Of a stretch of DNA of 64,000 nucleotides, positions 1,696-64,000 are shown in pieces. A program made the position numbers and the translations under genes. The stretch's first letter is position 1; each line of letters opens with the position of its first letter. The DNA is from Takashimella koratensis (Eukaryota; Basidiomycota; Tremellomycetes; Trichosporonales; Tetragoniomycetaceae): NCBI GenBank assembly GCA_003116875.1, contig BCKT01000019.1, forward strand, positions 62,001-126,000. The letters are read 5' to 3'. The notes beneath the pieces were generated by a model that searched no databases, was not told the DNA's origin, and saw only the letters and a list, made by a program, of their open reading frames with translations.

Positions 1696-3470
1696 ATGAA
1701 CCACCCATCGTCCCCCACCCTGTCATTCGACCCGTCTGTAAGCCATCTCCTTCCCTTTCTGTTCTCGGAGTCGACTCTCACTGACGTGGCTTCCAGAACG
1801 AGGACTACCTCCTCACACCCACCGACTCAGGTACGAGCTTCGACCTATCGAGATGTCTTCAAGTGAGCTGTCTGACCCCGTTACCCTCATTCTAGTTTGC
1901 CCTACCTCCCTTCCTCACTCCAGTGAACTGTCTGTTTACACCTCCCCGCTGACTGCACTAGGACTTCTTGGACTCCCAAGAGGTCGAGTGGGCCGATCCG
2001 TATCGCAAGGGTGACGAGGACTTTGCCCCCACCAAAGATCCGGACTTCAACCTCCAAGTTCCCTCACAGAGCGTGATCTTCCCCAGCCCTCTCCTCCCTT
2101 CCCTATTCCCCCTCCCCGACACCGTCAATCTGTCTGCCATCTGTCCGCAGACCCTCTCTTCCCCTGTTCCCCCAACTTCCACCTCCTCCACGGTCGGCAG
2201 CCTGCTTGACGTGGACGTTGACAAGGAAGATCTCTCGGATATGAAATCCGACACCTCTACTTCCCCAAGCGTGGACGCGTACAGCTACCGCCCCAAAGGT
2301 GAATCGGTGGAGGAGGACGAAAGCGAGGACGAGGACGAGGAGGCGGATGCGGATGAAGATGGGGACGAGGTGAGTTTTCATCATTCCCTATCCCCCACTC
2401 CACGCGCCACTGATGCCGTCAAAGGACCCCGATGACAAAAGCGTTCTAACATCCGCACCATCCTCCATCTACTTAAAGACACCCTCGCCACCCCCTCCCC
2501 CTTCTGTGCCTCTCACCCCACCACCCTCCGCCAAACATCGTCGACTCTCCCCTCGCCGGACCATGCCCCCGCACATCATCCAGACCGCCCGAAAGCGTGC
2601 GCGACCCACGTCCAAGCCCACCACCGACCTCAAGTCGGTCTCCGTGAGTCCATCGACCTCGTCCCTCTTCCCATCAATCCAGCACACGTACCACGTCCTG
2701 CTGCTCACATCATCATCCAGCCCAAGACCAAGCCCATCGTCGCGGTCACCCCTGCGGCCACGCCACTTGCTACCCCCGCCCCCCCTCGCTTTCCCGACTT
2801 CCGCATCTACCTCCCTACCCCCTCCACCCCTACCCACTCGTCCACTCCTCCCACTCTCGCCGACGTGCCCCTTGCCACCCCTCCCGTCGTCAGCAATAAG
2901 GACGATTCAACCGTCCTCTCTCCCCCCACTTCGCGTACCCGCACGAGGGTGTCGGCACCGGCTCCGCAGCGAGCCAAGCGGGAGCACGTCGATGACTCGA
3001 GCGACTCGGACTATGCGCCGAGCACCACCGTCGTCACCAAGCGCAAGACGACCAAGGCAAGCCCTTCCAAAAAGCGGACCAAGTCCCCGTCGTCCAAGAA
3101 GCGCAACGGCGAGGCGCGCAAGTCGCAGAACCGGGATGCTCAGGAGAGGTACCGAAACAAAGGCAAAAATGTGACGAGCCTTGTGAGTGAGCTTTCCGGC
3201 TTGATCGATTCGACTTGAGCGCGTACTAACTTGAGCTCTAGTACAAGACCTTGCTCGCCAGTGGCATACACATCAGCCGTACCGTCAAGTCTCCAGCTGA
3301 GAGGTGCCGTAGGTACGAGGACCTGTTCAAGGGCACGTGGTCGACACTCAAGGGTGAGTTTGCAAGGTGACGAGAGGGTGTCGATGGACAAGGGGTTAAC
3401 AAGTGAGCTCGACACAGAGACGTGGCCCATGCAAACGGACCAGATCGAGCAGTTGATTGCTCGACTCTGA
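1696..3470 (+). CDS. ATF4/GCN4-like bZIP transcription factor
   Basis: A nuclear DNA-binding protein of about 463 residues. Proposed exons are 1696-1737, 1797-1862, 1896-1922, 1962-2369, 2425-2643, 2721-3182, 3242-3353 and 3418-3470, and the reading frame is kept through all of them. Several introns are only 33-39 nt, and exon 3 encodes only nine residues. The middle is acidic (an E/D-rich stretch near 2310-2369) and Pro/Ser-rich. Near the C-terminus is a basic region containing SQNRDAQERYRNKGKN, which fits the bZIP signature N-x2-A-x4-R as in ATF4 (QNKTAATRYRQKKR). The following zipper is poor in regular leucines, so dimerisation may be weak. The basic region is split from the zipper by the 59-nt intron at 3183. 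With the uORFs upstream it fits an amino-acid or stress-response regulator, but that role is inferred. The gene converges on the repeat array downstream. Confidence 0.7.
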
Positions 3471-5726: not shown

Positions 5727-6530
5727 TCACTTCGCCTTCGCACTCTCCTTGGCTTTCTCCTTCTCCTTCTGCCGTTGCCTTTCTTTCTCCTTTTGCCTCT
5801 GTCTCTCCTTCTCTTTGTCTTTGTCCCCATCTTCACCGCTTCTCGACTCGTGCTCGGTCTTTGCGGACGGCTCGTATCTCTACCCGTACTCTGTTAGCCT
5901 ATACCACACCTCATCCAGCTAAAACTCACCAGTGCTGAGCGCCCAAACCAACCTCCCCCCAGAACGACCAACCCCACGCCTAACCCCACCTCGCACCCCC
6001 ACTTCCACCCAGGCCTGAACACTCCAACCCAGCCCTTGACAACGTGGGCAGCCACGTATCCTATCCAATACATACACCACTGGGGGGAGTCGTGAGACTT
6101 TGCGGGAGAGTAATCGAGCTCCACCCGCGCGGCGCGGAGCGAGTTGATTACCGGGATCAAAAGGGTGATAGGTGCGGATAGGTGAGGCTGGAGAACTGGC
6201 GGGGAGACGATGAGGAGCAAGAGGTAGATAAGCCCCGCTATGAGGGTGGCTTGGAGGGGTGGTACCGAGAGGGATGTGAGGATGGGCTCGAGCCAGCCGG
6301 CATGGGATTTCCACTATACGTTAGATCCGGAACGGAGCATGGCTTACCGAGTCTTTCACGAGCTTGTCAAGTTTGTCCTGCGGGTTGGATCGTGAAGAGC
6401 GCGATGACCGCTCTCCGCTGGATCTCTCTAAGCTCGACCGAGTCGATCTGTCTTTCCCATCATTGCTCTTCCCGTCTTTCCCGTCTGACTTTCTCTCGCT
6501 CGTGCTTTGATCTTTCCTCTCTTCCGGCAT
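5727..6530 (-). CDS. TB2/DP1/HVA22-like (REEP/Yop1) membrane protein
   Basis: Proposed exons are 6530-6348, 6313-5930 and 5879-5727 (183+384+153 nt), giving 239 residues. The N-terminal 61 residues are Ser/Lys/Glu/Arg-rich. Next come hydrophobic segments (LIAGLIYLLLLIVSPPVL and PITLLIPVI), then NSLRAAR and PQWCMYWIGYVAAHVVKG, and a further hydrophobic stretch. This order resembles the TB2/DP1/HVA22 core, where a Tyr/Pro-x-KAIES segment is followed by QWLTYWVVY. Such proteins shape tubular ER. The tail is a highly charged Lys/Glu/Arg/Gln helix (EKERQRQKEKERQRQKEKEK). The first intron is 34 nt and the second 50 nt. The start is the first ATG before the charged N-terminus. It lies 145 bp downstream of chs5 on the same strand. 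Family membership is moderately supported. Confidence 0.6.
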
Positions 6531-55522: not shown

Positions 55523-56763
55523 TTTTGTTGCCTGCGAGGTTGAATGAATCGACGATCACACGAGTGCGCGGGGGGACGGAATCGACAGCGCGAGGGGGAA
55601 ACGAGGATAGCAGCGAGAGAAGAGAGACAGGTCAGCACGGCGATGACGGGGCAGCGGAGGGGACTGGGATAAAGGTGGTGGTGGTGATCGCTGTACGCAC
55701 CTAGGTCGTGACTTGACGGATGAAGAGGAAGAGAGAGGAAAAAATGAAAATGTTGAAGTTGGTGCTGGCTGGTGAGGGTTCCTCCAGGGTGAGCCCAAAG
55801 GTGGCACTCACTCCTGGCTCAATTTCGAAACCCAAACAGAAATCGCCGCGAAACTCCGCAAGCGTGTGGCGGGGTCACTCTTCCTGCGTGATAAGTCCTT
55901 CGGTCCCAAGGGAAAGTCCACGTCACTCACCTCCGCTTGGCTTACTCATCACCTTGACCCCCGCTCCTTCTGTATAAATTTTCTGCGACACCCGCAACCT
56001 CTTTCTTCTTCTTTACAATAACGCATTTTAAATCCCAACCTAAAAGCACCTGCGCGCCTTGCTCTCACTCCTGGGTCCCTCTCGGGGTCACTCAGTCGCA
56101 GTGTTCGATCTTTTCTTTTCGTAACGCATTTCTGGCGCGCGGGCCGTACGTTGAGGAAGAGAATCAGTGTTAAAACCCAGACGCGTTATGGGTGGATCGC
56201 TCGTAGGTCCCTCTTTACCCAAAGTGGTGAAGAGGGACGATGGTGAGGGGTCCAAGACGTGTTTGACATTCGAGAATGTTGGTGATGTCATCTTGTGCCG
56301 TGTTGTTTGCTTCAGAGAGTAACCAGATCGTCCGGGCCTTGGTCGCGCTTGCTCACTCGTTCAGCAGTCAACCCACTCTCAACATCCCTCGCGCTCGCTC
56401 GCCTTGACCTTACCCACCCAGTTTTGTCTCACGCTCCCTTTCCAGCTCAATCTCCAGCTGCCCATTGCTCTCATCTTACTTATCTGACCTTTGTTACCCA
56501 CGCTCCTCAGCCTAACGCGTTTGGACCATCGGTCCTTTCACGTCTAGCTGGGGTGGAGCGACCGTTATCAAAGGATGTTGACGGAGTCGTCATCGGCGTG
56601 GTGTAGTATTCAGCGCGTGAGTATCTCACGGTGACAACTTACACCCCTCACCACCTCCCTTAACACTCACTATCGTCTCAACACTTACCACCGTCTCAAC
56701 ACTCACCACCCTCTCAACACTCACCACATCCCATACTCCTTGACAGCCTTTCCCAGTCTCACG
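55523..56763. other. intergenic; eL13 promoter and island boundary
   Basis: Upstream of eL13 and before the first small island gene. C/T-rich. At 56545-56557 is the 13-mer CTAGCTGGGGTGG, repeated at 57397-57409. TTATCAAAGG is at about 56567-56576. A series of short direct repeats (CTCAACACTCACCAC) runs at about 56664-56730. The ORFs here look like shadows. Confidence 0.5.
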
Positions 56764-57174
56764 ATGTCTACCACAACCGGCTCCCACTACACCTGGGCGG
56801 ACATGTGCCGCGAGCTGACTGAAATTTCCATGAAAATGTCCGAAGAAGACAGTCACATGTGGGATGACGATTCAGCCAAGTCGCACATCCCGCAGTCCAT
56901 CATCGAGGAGTCCAACGCTAGCACCGACCATGACAACGCCGATTCTACCATTCCTTATACGACCTCGTCATCCACAACAGTCGAGGTCGTAGACTTTCTG
57001 TGCGTCCTGTTTGTCCGTATCCTCGTCGCCATTATGCCTCGGCAGGCAGTACACTCGCTCCCCGTGACAGCATTTGTTGACTCAATGACCTATAGACATC
57101 CTAGCTGGATCCCGCGTCACGAACGTGACGCAACCGCGAAGAACAGCGTCAGCACCTCTCAGAGTGGGGGCTAG
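56764..57174 (+). CDS. small orphan protein with hydrophobic segment
   Basis: A single-exon ORF of 136 residues from the ATG at 56764 (a start further upstream would use the pyrimidine tract). The N-terminus is polar and acidic (SEEDSHMWDDDS). Residues of about 77-93, VDFLCVLFVRILVAIM, are hydrophobic and could cross or associate with a membrane. The C-terminus is basic/Ser-rich. There is no signal peptide and no recognisable family. It shares upstream motifs with its neighbours (CTAGCTGGGGTGG and TCAAAGG), which is the main reason to take it as a gene. Confidence 0.45.
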   Translation: MSTTTGSHYTWADMCRELTEISMKMSEEDSHMWDDDSAKSHIPQSIIEESNASTDHDNADSTIPYTTSSSTTVEVVDFLCVLFVRILVAIMPRQAVHSLPVTAFVDSMTYRHPSWIPRHERDATAKNSVSTSQSGG

Positions 57175-57510
57175 TATCGGTCTTCTATTGGAAGGATCTA
57201 CCTCTGCTCTGATGTATACGTCTTCCTTGGAGAGTCGTGACAGCAAGTGCACTGACAGCTGAACCCACTCGACCAGACCTACAGTTCACCCTTTGTAGCT
57301 CCCAGCGCCCACCCCTCCCTTCATGACTTGAGTGCAGAAATAGCAAGCCAGACTCGTTGTTTCACTATCCGCCAAACGCGTCAAGGGAGTGACCGACTAG
57401 CTGGGGTGGTCTCTAGCTCGTTCAAAACGTTGCCACCCATATATGCCCCCTCTTTCTTTCTTTTAACTATCCGCAACTTTGAACATACAGCGAATAACCA
57501 CACAAACGAC

Positions 57511-57766
57511 ATGCCCAACTCGACCGCTTCAACAAGTAGTACCGTCAAACCCAGCAGCGTCGGAACGGCCAAGACCAACAGTACTGGATCCAAGTCAAAC
57601 CAGAAGACTCCGCTGCAAATTCTCCTCGACAGTATACGCGGTGATAACAGGTGAGTTTGGCGGTGACAGCAAAATCTATCCTTTTCGCTGACTTGGTAGC
57701 ACCACTTCGAACGCGAAATCAAACGAGAATTCGACGACTGGGTTTGGGGGCTCCTCGAACCGTTGA
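57511..57766 (+). CDS. small Ser/Thr/Asn-rich orphan protein
   Basis: Exons 57511-57650 and 57700-57766 join in phase, 68 residues, with a 49-nt intron (branch gctgac, acceptor gtag). The product begins MPNSTASTSSTVKPSSVG, contains one hydrophobic-amphipathic stretch (TPLQILLDSIRG) and ends TTGFGGSSNR. It is low-complexity and otherwise featureless. The 13-mer CTAGCTGGGGTGG is 102 bp upstream of the ATG. No family is recognised. Confidence 0.45.
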
Positions 57767-58113
57767 GTTAGAGAATGAGATGGAGACGGCGCTTCGCGTC
57801 TGTCTCAGTGACCGTGGCCTAGATCTTGCGTTCAACCACGATATGCACTCCAGTATATTTGAGCACGGTTAGGAGACTGACCTCGTTAGCAAATGAGGCT
57901 AGGTTTTTCTCGCTCAGCGGATGCTACCCGCCGGGACGCCCAATCCGTCTGTCATCATATCCTTGACATGTCGACCGTTTGTTTTCCTTTGTACCGACCA
58001 ACCATTGTTTTCGGTCGCGGTCAGATGGACGCAATTGGTCCTTTGAGCAATGCAGTGTTGCAGCATGTCAAAGCTGGCGAAAGGTTGTTGGCGTCAAAAT
58101 GCACAGAGCTGTT

Positions 58114-58141
58114 ACCTTTGATGAGGCGGATCATCAAAGGT
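58114..58141. promoter_or_regulatory. promoter inverted repeat ACCTTTGA-n12-TCAAAGGT
   Basis: Perfect 8-bp arms at 58114-58121 and 58134-58141, 136 bp upstream of the first family-member ATG. A TATA-like sequence (ACATATAAAG) lies about 43 bp further downstream. ATCAAAG/CTTTGAT is the core bound by HMG-box factors, so an HMG-type regulator is a possible binder (inference). Confidence 0.6.
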
Positions 58142-58276
58142 GGCGCACTGTGCGGGTGAAATTGGCGTTATAGTCTTGTACTACATATAAAGACGAACAC
58201 GCCCCCGATTCCTCCACATTGCTCGACTGTAGGAGTTACTTCCAATCGTACATTGCACCGCATTTCCTCAGCTCTC

Positions 58277-58860
58277 ATGACACTCCCACAAACCTCCTCA
58301 GCCGAAGGCTCCACGGTAGTCGCTACAAGGTGAGCTTGAGCCTTCACACTTTGCCTCCCTTTGAAATCCATAGGTGAAGCAGTCCAAGGCAAAGTCTGAC
58401 GCTACTCAGCGCAATCAATCAGGATTTCATGAGCGGAGTCAACATGATATCCATCAAACAGGAGGAATTCTTTCGCTTATACAATGTCTTTCGATCTCAC
58501 TACCCTTCTAACGCTCAGGGGGAGTCGGGTGGGACCTTTGATCACATCGCTATTGCTGGGACATTTTTGTCTCTGTCGATCTCTGTAGAAGAACTCGAGA
58601 CAGACTTTGAATCAATGACTAAGTTGGTGCAACGCGGCAAAAACGCATTCAACGGTGGAACCGGACCAGCTCTTACTCAGGAAGAGCTCGAAAGCAGCAA
58701 AGCTGTAGCAAATTCGCAGATGCAGCTGACTGATACGTGGGTCGAGGTGAGGGACATTTGGTTGCAAGCGGCATTGAAGGATACCAGTGCGGCTGATTCG
58801 GAAGCTCTAATGTGCATGGCAAGGTTGCCGGTAGGCTGGTCAGAAAGGAAAGAGGTATGA
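58277..58860 (+). CDS. island family member 1, coiled-coil-type orphan
   Basis: Exons 58277-58329 (53 nt) and 58410-58860 give 167 residues. The 80-nt phase-2 intron has branch ctgac and acceptor ctcag. The start MTLPQTSSAEGSTVVATS is polar, with no signal peptide. The body is helical: SISVEELETDFESMTKLVQR, then LTQEELESSKAVANSQMQLT, DTWVEVRDIWLQAA. The spacing of the last part matches members 2-4 (conserved Glu/Asp pair, a QL dipeptide, then Arg/Lys, then Trp or another hydrophobic residue). No known domain is recognised. The inverted repeat 136 bp upstream links it to members 2 and 3. Confidence 0.55.
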
Positions 58861-59457
58861 TAGCTTCTCGACCTGCTAAAACACGGCATAATGTGAGAAC
58901 GCGCGCACCTTCGTACCCACTTGTAGACAACAGATCATTGAGTGCCATTAGCCCAGTCCTTGCCTATGTCGCCTGCAGACATGATGAATCGTTTGAGTAT
59001 GCCGTCTCTGAAGTAAGTTCAAGGATGTTTGGAAGTTAGAGGGTGGCAAAGACAAAATTGCTCCATGATACTTGCAAGATAGCCATGTATCATGGGAGAG
59101 ATGGGTCACAACCTCAACAGAGGCAGCACAGCTTCACCCCGGGATGCTCCCCACACGCGCACAACGGGGAGGTACTGTAATCTCACTGCCAATCCAGGTG
59201 TAGTACTCCTCTGTCATCGTTGACTTCGAACGACTCGGAGGCTATCGCGGGGGCTAACAGACCATCAAAGGTCGTTTACGGGATCTGATCTCGGAGGTAT
59301 ACAGACTACCGTTGAGGCTCATAGAGCGTCAAAGGTTGTTTAGCCGCGCTGCACTCGGATACTTTGTCAAACACTTGAAAGCCGCGGAGGCAGACTCGGG
59401 GTTGAAATGGGTACTCAAAGGGTCGCTGTGGGAGTCGCGTCTGGATGCACCGGGGCT

Positions 59458-59483
59458 ACCTTTGACGAACGACAATCAAAGGT
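59458..59483. promoter_or_regulatory. promoter inverted repeat ACCTTTGA-n10-TCAAAGGT
   Basis: Arms at 59458-59465 and 59476-59483, 120 bp upstream of the ATG at 59603, followed by TGACAACGGGA. Further TCAAAGG half-sites lie near 59264 and 59330. The block 59228-59345 resembles the block 60500-60620 before the next gene, so the promoters look duplicated. A TATAAG is at 59518. Confidence 0.6.
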
Positions 59484-59602
59484 TGACAACGGGACAAGTC
59501 TGAGAATCCACCGCAGGTATAAGCCGCCTTGGAGCACCCACCCCTCTTATCGTTTCTATCATCATCGATAACACCAGTCTTGCAGTACATCAGCCATCAA
59601 AC

Positions 59603-60221
59603 ATGACTCCCGAAGTTGACCAAGTCTTGCTCATCTCCCCTGAAGCCTTCCGCTCTCTCCAACATGACTTAACTCTCAGTTACTGATTGACGCCAACCCG
59701 AGGTAAGTGTACTGTGCTGACCCAGAACAATGCTGCAGGGCAAACCAGAGATTGAGAGATGGGTACTGACCAGCTCCTGCAGCGTCATCTCTAAGGAAGA
59801 GCTTGTCAGCCAGTTCAGGAACTTGACGGAGGAATCACAGCTGCTAGCGGCCTCTTGCAGTTTGTGTCGCTCAAAATTTGACACTTACAGCACTCTCGAA
59901 TACAGGTTAACATTCGGCACTCTGCAAGATGTTTGCAATGAGTACCAAAAGATGGTCCAGTCTCACGAAGAGCTCGAGAAGAGAGTTCAAGATAGCGTGG
60001 TTAATGTCCAACGCTCTGCACTGGCATCTTTCTCGAGAGAAGCTGAAGGTTCTTCACAAGACGATGCTCTATTGCTTTCAAACTTCATCACTCAGTATGA
60101 GCAGCTCATTCTCGCAAGGGAAGAATGCTGGAAAGCGGCGTCCACAACACTCACTCTATTAGAAAGGTCGAATAAGCCATCGGTTCAGATAAACCACGAG
60201 GAAGAGACTTTGGATGCCTAA
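59603..60221 (+). CDS. island family member 2, 5' end uncertain
   Basis: The main exon 59783-60221 reads VISKEELVSQFRNL, then EELEKRVQDS, LLLSNFITQYEQLILAREEC and KAASTTLTLLERSNK, ending in an acidic NHEEETLDA. It aligns with member 3 (VSKETLVMQTRDL, DELEKEVNKC, LVQLSETRKSTW). An 80-nt phase-2 intron, 59703-59782, matches those of members 1 and 3. The upstream exon (ending ...LIDANP) is open only from about 59680. It needs a further intron, ending at ctctcag 59679, to reach the ATG at 59603, with a poor donor (gtcttg). The 5' end may therefore be mis-modelled, use another start, or be damaged. Confidence 0.5.
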
Positions 60222-60585
60222 GAGGCCTCGGAATATTGGCTTCCTTTACTTTGACTACATAGCCTTATAATGCGTGGCAGAGGATATATCTTTGTTGAAT
60301 ACAGACCTTGTTCATCGTGCGGACAGGAATGATCGTTCCGAGCCATGCATTAGCCTACCCCACCTTAGGCCAAGACTCGACTTACCGGCCCAGGGTCTTT
60401 AAGAGGACTCCGTGACCGCTGTTCGCACCAAATCACCCATGCCCTCCCCACATGTCTGGCGGCGTTCATCATGCAGCTCAACTGGACTTTACACCTTTCT
60501 GCGGAGCTATTCTCGGACGCAGACCGCGGGGTCTAATACTCCCTCAAAGGTCATCTAAGGAGCTGTTTCGGACACATACTATAAC

Positions 60586-60610
60586 ACCTTTGAGGAGAAT
60601 GATCAAAGGT
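60586..60610. promoter_or_regulatory. promoter inverted repeat ACCTTTGA-n9-TCAAAGGT
   Basis: Arms at 60586-60593 and 60603-60610, 117 bp upstream of the ATG at 60727, followed by AACAACGGGATA. An extra TCAAAGGT half-site is at about 60544. Its arrangement copies that before family member 2. Confidence 0.6.
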
Positions 60611-60726
60611 AACAACGGGATACGTCCGTGGATGTGGGTACATCAGCAGTCGAGTGCGCCCTATGTCGATGTGTCTTGCACCGTTTTCTTCAGCTCTGTT
60701 GATCCCATACTACATCAGCGCTTATC

Positions 60727-61321
60727 ATGTGCTCCGACCAAGACTCTAACACTGTCGTGCAATCCAGTGCTGACACAAAGTAAGTGCGCGTCTCCGCTTC
60801 ATTGCTTTCCCATTGTGAGGACGAGGCCCGTCAGGAGTGTGGACTCATCATTCTGCAGCCTCGTTTCCAAAGAGACCCTCGTTATGCAAACTCGGGATCT
60901 TGCAAAGAGAGGGTCAGAGGTCCTGACTTCCTATGACTCGCTGCAATCGACTTTTGAGGCGTGGGAAATTCCCGGCTGTGGAAGAACTTTGGCTGAAGTG
61001 GCTCCGATAATCCGAGAGTTCTCGAATATTGAAAGGTCATACGATGAGCTGGAGAAAGAGGTCAACAAGTGTTTGGATAAATGGAAACAATACCTGCAAG
61101 CGCTTGATTCCGGAGAGGTGTCGAAACTCTCAGCGAAAGAGATTCCGCTCATTATCGCAACCAGGGCCATGTTGGTGCAACTCAGTGAGACAAGGAAGTC
61201 GACTTGGACAAAGGCGAAACCGATCATCACTTTGGCCGATTTGGCATTAGATGAAGTGCTTAGTCACTTCAACGACAACGAACAGCATCCGATCAACTGG
61301 GCGAGTGCCCGCGTCGATTAG
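60727..61321 (+). CDS. island family member 3, coiled-coil-type orphan
   Basis: Exons 60727-60779 (53 nt, as in member 1) and 60859-61321 give 171 residues, with a 79-nt phase-2 intron (acceptor ctgcag). The start is MCSDQDSNTVVQSSADT. The body reads LVSKETLVMQTRDLAKRGSE, LTSYDSLQSTFEAWEIPG, IERSYDELEKEVNKCLDKWK and IIATRAMLVQLSETRKSTW, all predicted helical. It ends ...PINWASARVD. There is no signal peptide, transmembrane segment or catalytic motif. It is closest to member 2 by eye. Function unknown; a cytoplasmic coiled-coil protein is the most that can be said. Confidence 0.6.
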
Positions 61322-61831
61322 TAGGAGAAGCGGCAGAACCGTCATGACGTCTTTCATAGTTGCTGAAGGCTAGCTTCTTTTTTCAATTTTCATAGCTCGC
61401 CTAGGTATGCAAATTCGCACTAGTCTAATGTGCCCTCGACCGGAATAGTGAGAGGTTCAAAGACATCGCCACCGCATCCTTGGATTCGGACCCCTCCGAA
61501 CACCTTTAACAAGCACACCCGACAGACAGCGCACATCCCAAGCGCACACCTGCAAGGCGTGGATTTTGCACCTTTCATTCCTGCATGAACAATGCACCGA
61601 TCCTCGAGATTTGAACCCACTCTCGGTCTCGGCCGAAAAGCTCGGCGATTCGCCCGGGATGCTGTGGCGCTCCTGAGCTGAGTTCCAACACCCTTTCAAC
61701 CGCACGAAGGTTCTGGCGCCACCACTGGTTGAAGAGTGGAGTATCGAATTGTGGACGACAACCCACCTCCTATTTCTTAATTCAAATTACTCATCACCCC
61801 CTCTCACTTGCCACTGACTCACTCAAACATC
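61322..61831. other. spacer between family members 3 and 4
   Basis: 510 bp without a gene I can support. It contains a minus-strand tRNA-like patch (box-B-like GGGTTCAAATC near 61606-61616) that does not fold into a proper cloverleaf. No ACCTTTGA inverted repeat was found, unlike the other spacers. Confidence 0.5.
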
Positions 61832-62914
61832 ATGGTGTCCAACGAAAACACCAGGCACCCTACTGACAACTGGGAGACCCCCCGCAATGGCTCTACCACC
61901 TTCCACAAGGTTCCGCAGGACACTGGGTCCTTCACTCCTGCATCCCAATCCATCGACCTCGCCGAAACCGATTTGATACTCATCACCTTCGACAGGGTGG
62001 CTCCTCACCAGGAATCCGCAAGCTCCAAAACGATCACCGCTGCCACTACCGACAAAGCCAAGTTCCCCAACGTCACAGCCCAGCGGACAGAGTTGTGAGT
62101 GACGCCTCATTCCCCTAGACATCTGAAATATTCTGAAACACAGGGTCACTCATCCGGTGAAGCGATTTAATCCTGACACTTTCACAGTGCCAAGAAACGC
62201 AGCGAGTACACCCGACTGCTGGGCGGAGCCGACCGCTTTCAGACTCTCCTCACCTCACTCGCGAGATTGCATACCAAGGTTCAAGCTTGGAATGTCAGGT
62301 ATGACGTCGGAGGGTGACTGAGGCGGTCCGAGCGGTCCCGGGGTACCTGGATGCCGAGAGAACAATAAGACCGAGCGGGGTGGCGCAGGTGGCGCAGGCC
62401 GAGACCATGGAGAACAATAAGACCACTAGTGGAGGCGATGCAGCGCTGCGGCGCACGGGCCCAAAAGCGGTTGCGGCCGCGGAGAATGACGGGGATGCAT
62501 GAACGACGCGCAAGCGGTCGAGGCCGACCTGTTGCACTTAAATAGCAGTCGGTAGCGTCGAGAGATGAATCCCCAACCCGTTAGAAACTTAACATGGAAC
62601 GCGTCAGACACTGCCACTTCTGGGCAAATTTACAAGCTCAACCAATGGGCTGTCAACGGTCTCACGACAACATCAGAGCCAAATTCGATCCCTGCCGCGA
62701 ACTTGCTGATGCGCTCACGACCGCTGAAGAAATGGGCAAGCAGCTTTCCAACGAGGAGTCCAGATGGCTTCGCCACTCCAAGGGCCTTCTGAGTCAGCTT
62801 GACCAGCTCGAAGTGGCGCGAGAGGCGGCAGATCGAGAGCTGTTCCCCGCCATCCTCCGAGTGTTCTCTGCAGATTTTGCTGACAAAGAGGCAACTCTCA
62901 AGCTTGGCGCGTGA
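61832..62914 (+). CDS. island family member 4, diverged
   Basis: Exons 61832-62094, 62188-62298 and 62677-62914 join in frame to 203 residues. The second intron (378 nt) is unusually long here and may hide another exon. The N-terminal 87 residues are polar (MVSNENTRHPTDNWETPRNG) and unlike the other members. The rest resembles them: LLTSLARLHTKVQAW, ELADALTTAEEMGKQLSNEE, WLRHSKGLLSQLDQLEVARE and LFPAILRVFSADF. Compare LTSYDSLQSTFEAW in member 3 and EQLILAREE in member 2. The inverted-repeat promoter is not seen, so regulation may differ. Confidence 0.5.
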
Positions 62915-62956
62915 CGAATAGCTGGGTGAGTGGGGAAGTACGCATTGTACGCGAGC

Positions 62957-62979
62957 GGGGGGGGGGGGGGGGGGGGGGG
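62957..62979. repeat. poly-G run
   Basis: About 23 consecutive G just 3' of family member 4. Similar runs occur near 4487 (C), 11000-11065, 18278 and 24720-24790. The true length may be uncertain. Confidence 0.8.
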
Positions 62980-63745
62980 CACGCAAAGATTCGCTGAAAT
63001 GCTGAATAAAGCAGTCGGAAATCCTGCGAATGGGCCCATTTGAGCGTAGGCAATACCCCTCCGACATTGTTACGCTCGGTGTGGTGTCCCACTTCACGCA
63101 TTCGAACCTACCCAACACATGTCGATGATTTGTTAGATCCATACACGACATCTGCCCTTGCTCATACAGTCACATGCCAAGATGTTACAGCCTGTCCTTC
63201 ATACTCTCGTTGCACCGAGTCTAGGTGGTTGAGCTATGCTCTCAAATGGTCTCACAGTACCAACGGCTGACCTGAATGCTGGCACCACTCGTGTTGTGCT
63301 CGGCAGACAATCAGCCGCTATCTCATCAGCACTGCCGCGCCTTCCTCGCCGACGCCATGCCTGAACGACGCTGCCTACAAAGACGCTGCCACCCTGAGAT
63401 CCTCCTTTTTACGGCGGAGACGCGTGGCGGAGCATTTTCCAATTCAAAGGCCCAATATGCGAGGGGGCGTGGATCCACACATGGGCGTGGTGCGCAACTC
63501 ACCTTTATCTTCGGGAGCCAACCGACGGTATCTCTCCCTTCAGCCGTCGCTCTTTTGTTTTTCAGAGTGTCTCCTGTCGAATGAATGTGAGGCTGGCTTG
63601 AGTTACAAGACGAGGGGAGAAGGCCGCTCTTTGTCTAACACCACCTTTCATGCGCCGATCTAGCACATCATCAACGCATCCTTCATATTACGGTGAGAAC
63701 ATTTGAAACTCAGCTATGCTGTCCTCTGATCAACACGACAATCCT
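62980..63745. other. spacer, no gene recognised
   Basis: Only short ORFs with no similarity to the island family are present. A box-B-like GGTTCGAAT on the minus strand near 63098 has no matching box A. Confidence 0.5.
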
Positions 63746-63783
63746 ACCCTTTGAGTCACCACCTTTGAATGACGATCAAATGT
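63746..63783. promoter_or_regulatory. imperfect ACCTTTGA...TCAAATGT promoter element
   Basis: ACCTTTGA at 63761-63768 and TCAAATGT at 63776-63783 (one mismatch in the second arm, 7-nt spacer), with another CCTTTGAG just upstream. A TATA-like GGATATAAAC is at about 63884-63893, and an ATG lies 120 bp downstream at 63903 (MTLSKPPAP..., compare MTLPQTSS in member 1). This suggests the start of a fifth family gene that continues outside the window. Confidence 0.45.
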
Positions 63784-64000
63784 CTCGGTGGAGCTTCACA
63801 TCAAGTCAGAAGCGCTGCCTGTGGCCCTCTCCTTTCATGTACAAAGGTCGAACGTCTTTCAGCTGCATGCCCGCGTCTCAAGAGGGATATAAACTTGGTT
63901 GCATGACCCTCTCCAAACCCCCTGCTCCCCATTTCTCCTCACTCACTCCACTCATTACTCCTCGACTTCCCAAGAGCTCACAAAGCCAATCACAGACAAA

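What the first reader, a model, noticed from the sequence alone, without database searches (positions are those of the whole stretch)
56300..64000. Lineage-specific tandem gene family with a shared inverted-repeat promoter
Four small plus-strand genes (58277, ~59603, 60727, 61832) encode diverged helical proteins with matching segments (VISKEELVSQFRNL / LVSKETLVMQTRDL; EQLILAREE / VQLSETRK / DQLEVARE). Members 1 and 3 have a first exon of exactly 53 nt. Members 1-3 have a phase-2 intron of 79-80 nt. Each of these three is preceded by ACCTTTGA-n(9-12)-TCAAAGGT, 117-136 bp before the ATG. I recognise no known domain. The combination suggests local duplication of gene plus promoter, with rapid protein divergence under one shared regulator.
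Basis: partly seen in the sequence, partly recalled or inferred. Interest (0 to 1): 0.8.

Follow-up and report, generated by a model that had tools for sequence, protein, structure and literature searches.

The report
Tandem orphan genes sharing one promoter switch
In a yeast-like fungus, a short row of small genes of unknown function includes old copies of one gene whose proteins have drifted far apart while a matching DNA switch in front of them, found as a close pair nowhere else in the genome, has been kept.

Summary
The motif is real. ACCTTTGA-n-TCAAAGGT (spacer 5-35) occurs 3 times in the 25.1 Mb genome, all before members 1-3; about 0.3 expected. Two one-mismatch copies lie in the same cluster, none elsewhere in the 176 kb held. 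Members 2 and 3 are paralogues (0 of 1000 shuffles; coding-type conservation). Member 1 is borderline to probable, member 4 only possible and without the motif. Members 2 and 3 share an upstream block of 105 columns at 70%, while their introns share nothing and third codon positions are near saturation: promoter outlived neutral sequence. This suggests a functional control element private to the locus. Weak points: no RNA data; member 2 does not fit the proposed splicing without a further intron or another start; phase-2 introns are common here (7 of 18). No homologue was found, but the nearest listed relatives, Tremellomycetes, are only 57% identical at a conserved gene, so 'lineage-specific' is unproven. 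Regulator and protein function are unknown.

The parts
58114..58141 (.). Inverted repeat 1, ACCTTTGA-n12-TCAAAGGT, before member 1
   Evidence: Exact; one of 3 in the genome
58185..58191 (+). TATA-like box of member 1 (ATATAAA), downstream of the repeat
   Evidence: consensus recalled
58277..58329 (+). Member 1, proposed exon 1 (53 nt)
   Evidence: no RNA evidence
58330..58409 (+). Member 1, proposed phase-2 intron (80 nt)
   Evidence: also found by the unguided scan
58410..58860 (+). Member 1, exon 2 with stop; orphan protein, borderline to probable paralogue of members 2 and 3
59234..59336 (.). Promoter block shared with member 3 (60512-60610), 105 columns, 70% identity; holds one half-site and a one-mismatch repeat
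   Evidence: E 1.7e-6; z 14.6, 0 of 300 shuffles
59308..59336 (.). Inverted repeat 2a, ACCGTTGA-n13-TCAAAGGT (one mismatch)
59458..59483 (.). Inverted repeat 2b, ACCTTTGA-n10-TCAAAGGT, before member 2
   Evidence: Exact; its right flank aligns with that of repeat 3
59518..59523 (+). TATA-like box of member 2 (TATAAG), downstream of repeat 2b
   Evidence: consensus recalled
59603..59702 (+). Member 2, proposed 5' part; the ATG 59603 frame stops at 59684-59686, so an extra intron or another start is needed
59703..59782 (+). Member 2, proposed 80-nt intron; holds an in-frame ATG at 59730 that would allow an intronless start
59783..60221 (+). Member 2, main coding exon with stop
   Evidence: homologous to member 3
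60512..60610 (.). Promoter block of member 3, counterpart of 59234-59336
60586..60610 (.). Inverted repeat 3, ACCTTTGA-n9-TCAAAGGT, before member 3
   Evidence: Exact
60727..60779 (+). Member 3, proposed exon 1 (53 nt)
60780..60858 (+). Member 3, proposed phase-2 intron (79 nt)
   Evidence: not found by the unguided scan
60859..61321 (+). Member 3, exon 2 with stop; low-confidence model of three long helices
61832..62094 (+). Member 4, proposed exon 1 (phase-2 end)
   Evidence: unguided scan
62095..62187 (+). Member 4, proposed intron 1 (93 nt)
62188..62298 (+). Member 4, proposed exon 2, unless it runs on to the nearby stop
62608..62914 (+). Member 4, proposed exon 3 with stop after a 309-nt intron (tentative; 62677 is another possible start)
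63761..63783 (.). Inverted repeat 4, ACCTTTGA-n7-TCAAATGT (one mismatch), 218 bp before an ATG at base 64001 (first base beyond the window, L008:1)

Best explanation
This is a small, old tandem gene family (members 2 and 3 shown; member 1 likely; member 4 and the gene starting at 64001 only possible) in a fungus of the Tremellomycetes or close to them. Gene and promoter were duplicated together. The proteins diverged to about 24% identity and neutral sequence is close to saturation, but the promoters kept an inverted pair of TCAAAGGT half-sites. Inferred mechanism: a dimeric sequence-specific DNA-binding protein sits on the repeat shortly upstream of the start region and switches the members together under one condition. 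The repeat probably acts as DNA, because in members 1 and 2 it lies upstream of a TATA-like box. Shown here: the motif, its confinement as a pair, paralogy of 2 and 3, conservation of their promoter block. Inferred: the dimer, co-expression, activation rather than repression, helical intracellular proteins.
For: All 3 exact paired motifs in 25.1 Mb lie here; the only everted pair with spacer 5-35 is here too. 8-mer half-sites: 11 in 6.1 kb (one of them inside member 1's coding exon) against 0.25 expected from the 7 in the other 170 kb. Members 2 and 3: 0 of 1000 shuffles, E 1.9e-4 and 5.2e-4. Identity by codon position over 130 codons 60, 65, 41. Upstream block 105 columns at 70%, E 1.7e-6, z 14.6, while the introns of the pair have z about 0 and their exon DNA gave no blastn hit at E under 1. 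Upstream regions of m1-m2 (0 of 300) and m1-m3 (4 of 300) also exceed shuffles, though this may be the repeat itself. A profile of m2+m3 against 1623 open frames plus 3 added sequences ranks the spliced m4 core (E 0.079) and m1 (E 0.10) next after m3 and m2. TATA-like boxes at -92 (m1), -85 (m2) and -114 (gene at 64001).
Against: No RNA data; the model of member 2 is unresolved and the frames of members 2 and 3 are also open without splicing. m1-m2 is not significant; in single profiles m1 ranks m3 only 8th (E 10) and m2 does not list m1 among its best 9; when m4 is added to m2+m3, m1 falls to E 1.1 behind an unrelated frame (E 0.061). Member 4 lacks the motif. No TATA-like match for members 3 and 4. 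A more sensitive comparison does find some exon-2 DNA similarity of m2 and m3 (1 of 300 shuffles as good), so saturation is not complete. The 9-mer ATCAAAGGT is common genome-wide (316 against about 119 expected), so only the pairing is special. Promoter similarity could stem from gene conversion rather than selection.
Confidence: 0.65

Rival explanations
1. The repeat is a pair of sites for an HMG-box factor of the Prf1/Mat2 kind, and the genes belong to a mating or filamentation regulon.
For: The core CAAAGG is shared with the grass-smut pheromone response element ACAAAGGGA (PMC3248468, passages); in Cryptococcus the HMG protein Mat2 binds pheromone response elements (PMC3744442, passages; the letters of that element are not among the passages and CAAAG/CTTTG occur 0 times in the text). 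The genome gives 7 HMG_box matches, 6 over the cut-off.
Against: Exact paired sites occur only here. The nearest ATCAAAGGT to the STE3-like gene at C2:2043636-2044573 (minus strand) is 6.9 kb away on its downstream side. The STE3-like stretches on C15 could not be checked because the listing of places stopped at C4. TCAAAGGT differs from ACAAAGGGA.
Confidence: 0.15
2. A later duplication or gene conversion copied the promoter block without function; the repeat is carried along.
For: The m2 promoter holds two copies of the repeat, as if locally duplicated.
Against: Introns of the pair are unrelated and third codon positions near background; member 1 has an exact repeat although no longer shared block was reported for it.
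Confidence: 0.13
3. The frames are not working genes, or some are decaying pseudogenes.
For: Apart from the longest, the plus-strand stop-free lengths lie below the shuffle average of 195; member 2 lacks a clean start; the gene at 64001 has an in-frame TAA in its proposed second exon.
Against: Codon-position pattern 60, 65, 41 of 130 (binomial p 3e-8, with the third-position rate taken as fixed). The 301-codon frame that holds m3 exceeded 100 of 100 shuffles (largest 274), but it also spans promoter and intron.
Confidence: 0.1
4. The repeat is a remnant of a mobile element or an RNA hairpin.
For: Inverted repeat with a short loop; the surroundings of repeat 1 are also imperfectly self-complementary over 54 columns.
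Against: Only 3 exact copies, at 117 to 136 bp before neighbouring genes; spacers differ; TATA-like boxes lie downstream of it in members 1 and 2; 0 Rfam matches at gathering score in the window.
Confidence: 0.04

Closest known systems
Taxonomically restricted tandem gene families of fungi (orphan clusters; recalled as a kind)
   Same: Small adjacent paralogues on one strand, no known domain, high divergence
   Different: Here an exact paired promoter element is confined to the cluster, and a promoter block outlasted introns
Ustilago Prf1 / Cryptococcus Mat2 pheromone response elements
   Same: CAAAGG core in promoters (ACAAAGGGA)
   Different: Inverted pair with 9-12 nt spacer, TCAAAGGT instead of ACAAAGGGA, one locus only, no copy of ATCAAAGGT near the C2 STE3-like gene
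Cluster-specific fungal regulators such as Zn2Cys6 factors on inverted CGG (recalled)
   Same: Palindromic motif before clustered genes
   Different: Half-site is not CGG; I recognised no transcription factor gene among the small frames, by eye only apart from the Pfam scan of 6 proteins

Membership tests
Tandem paralogue family | Significant protein similarity among members | tested here: met
   Met for m2-m3, i.e. 2 of 4; m1 borderline and m4 weak
Tandem paralogue family | Shared promoter by descent | tested here: met
   m2-m3 block, E 1.7e-6, z 14.6. For m4 and the gene at 64001 no upstream pair did better than 29 of 300 shuffles
Tandem paralogue family | Shared exon and intron structure | tested here: inconclusive
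   53-nt exon and phase 2 fit m1 and m3; m2 does not fit cleanly; phase 2 is common (7 of 18)
Lineage-specific genes | No homologues in adequately sampled relatives | tested here: inconclusive
   0 hits at E up to 1, but the best listed VTS1 relative is 57% identical
Mat2/Prf1 pheromone regulon | Same element before pheromone or receptor genes | tested here: inconclusive
   Not near the STE3-like gene on C2; C15 not checkable from the cut listing
BAR domain | Pfam BAR gathering score | tested here: not met
   m3 13.7 bits against 28.5
BAR domain | BAR-type three-helix fold | tested here: inconclusive
Secreted effector cluster | Signal peptide | not tested
   No predictor at hand; by eye the N-termini show no hydrophobic stretch

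The most novel reading that the evidence does not exclude
A locus-private regulatory circuit: one regulator whose paired binding site exists only at this array keeps a set of fast-diverging proteins in lockstep, as might be expected of conflict proteins (nonself recognition or selfish elements). The array may extend to about a dozen small plus-strand genes over 13 kb, all derived from one ancestor.
Probability: 0.12. Interest if true: 0.7.

Novelty: new member of a known kind. Interest (0 to 1): 0.42.

Why it matters
It offers an internal comparison, within one genome, of how long a promoter element can outlive introns, synonymous sites and most of a protein sequence. A motif pair confined to one cluster also makes the regulator findable by a simple binding screen, which could give a first handle on genes with no known relatives.

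Full report
Setting. The window is G000:C19:62001-126000 of a 25.1 Mb, 24-contig genome. The contig's VTS1-like frame (family name as in the records) matches Tremellomycetes best: 57% to Kwoniella newhampshirensis, 56% to Naematelia encephala and Tremella mesenterica, 54% to Vanrija albida (class of Kwoniella and Vanrija checked). So this is a fungus in or near the Tremellomycetes with no close relative among the 120 proteins listed. I held 176 kb of contig C19, 299 of them N.

Motif. The exact repeat ACCTTTGA-n9-12-TCAAAGGT occurs 3 times in the genome, at window 58114, 59458 and 60586. Widening the spacer to 5-35 still gives only these 3; the opposite arrangement gives one, in the promoter of member 3. 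Local half-site density predicts 0.04 and 0.33 repeats, composition 0.01 and 0.09. With one mismatch (spacer 5-17) two more appear, 59308 and 63761, and none in the rest of the 176 kb. Half-sites number 11 in 6.1 kb against 0.25 expected; one of the 11 lies in member 1's coding exon. The single 9-mer ATCAAAGGT is however common: 316 copies, against 119 expected from composition and 71 for the reversed word. The pairing, not the half-site, is special to this cluster.

Proteins. Members 2 and 3 align over 131 residues at 24% identity (E 1.9e-4; E 5.2e-4 the other way; 0 of 1000 shuffles), although two-sequence BLASTP missed it (E 2.3). Identical positions by codon place over 130 codons are 60, 65 and 41, the mark of protein-coding selection with third positions near background. 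m1-m3 is borderline (6 of 1000 local, 1 of 1000 global; cores only, 45 of 2000); m1-m2 is not significant (265 and 141 of 1000). A profile of m2+m3 run over 1623 open frames plus three added sequences puts the spliced m4 core (E 0.079) and m1 (E 0.10) next after m3 and m2. m3-m4 reaches 2 of 2000, m2-m4 489 to 499 of 2000. A profile of m1-m3 ranks the frame holding m4's first exon next (E 0.19), then the m4 core (E 0.69); but m1 alone ranks m3 8th (E 10), and a profile of m2-m4 ranks m1 (E 1.1) behind an unrelated frame (E 0.061). Searches of the genome with m1, m2, m3 and the last m4 exon found no other convincing paralogue; the only outside match was one on C2 at E 0.13 (1 to 3 candidates scored each).

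Promoters against neutral sequence. In a self-comparison of the 14.5-kb island the best hit is the upstream block of m2 against that of m3 (59234-59336 / 60512-60610, 70% over 105 columns, E 1.7e-6); a control stretch of the same length gave its best hit at 2.4e-4. With shuffles z is 14.6. The block ends at the repeat of m3, which is matched by the one-mismatch repeat of m2; the right flank of m3's repeat instead matches that of m2's second, exact repeat. So m2 seems to have an internal duplication of the element. Introns of the three genes show no similarity, and exon-2 DNA of m2 and m3 only a little (1 of 300 shuffles as good). Thus promoter sequence outlived neutral sequence; selection is the simplest reason, gene conversion the alternative.

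Gene models. m1 and m3 allow 53-nt exons with 80- and 79-nt phase-2 introns. For m2 the ATG at 59603 meets a stop ending at 59686 and is out of frame; an extra intron or an intronless start at 59730 is needed. An unguided scan of the island found 5 spliced models on the plus strand and none on the minus strand; 4 of 5 are phase 2; m1 and m4 are among them, m2 and m3 are not. Outside, 7 of 18 are phase 2. So intron phase adds little.

Function. No domain over a cut-off, no homologue, a low-confidence three-helix model for m3 (pLDDT 65) that resembles many helical bundles. I infer intracellular helical proteins. The repeat lies upstream of TATA-like boxes in m1 and m2, so I infer a DNA site for a dimeric factor. 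The HMG-box idea rests on the CAAAGG core shared with ACAAAGGGA (PMC3248468, passages) and on Mat2 of Cryptococcus (PMC3744442 and PMC2869318, passages); the one check I could make, at the C2 STE3-like gene, gave no support.

Verdict. A real, small, diverged tandem family (two members firm) with a promoter element confined to its locus as a pair: an ordinary kind of thing with an unusually clear regulatory signature. Interest is moderate because function, regulator and phylogenetic spread are open.

Noticed in passing
window 56764-64000 and L008:1-5711 (C19:118764-131711): A row of about a dozen small, mostly Ser/Thr-rich or helical frames, all on the plus strand and about 1 kb apart (starts near 56764, 57511, the four members, 64001 and L008 2299, 3315, 4201, 5271; some by eye, two). 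They may be one larger family.
   Followed up: partly
L008:1-455 (base 64001 onward): Gene starting at the first base after the window with a one-mismatch repeat 218 bp upstream; its proposed second exon holds an in-frame TAA, so it may be a decayed member.
   Followed up: partly
G000 genome, C2:2043636-2044573 and C15:465003-468970: STE3-like receptor matches on two contigs, apparently two sets on C15.
   Followed up: no
G000 genome: ATCAAAGGT is 2.6 times more frequent than composition predicts (316 against 119), the reversed word less (71); a general element or a coding effect.
   Followed up: no
C10:326133-326161 (L024:1500-1528): A looser repeat, ACCTTTGA-n13-TCAAAGGA, lies about 235 bp before a short orphan-like frame; a possible second site of the same regulator.
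   Followed up: partly
C7:98844-99301 (L019-L021): Three identical looser repeats spaced 218 bp apart, apparently a tandem repeat.
   Followed up: no
window about 62958-62979; L008 about 1095-1110, 3165-3180, 5829-5893: Long G or C runs and an N gap between the small genes.
   Followed up: no
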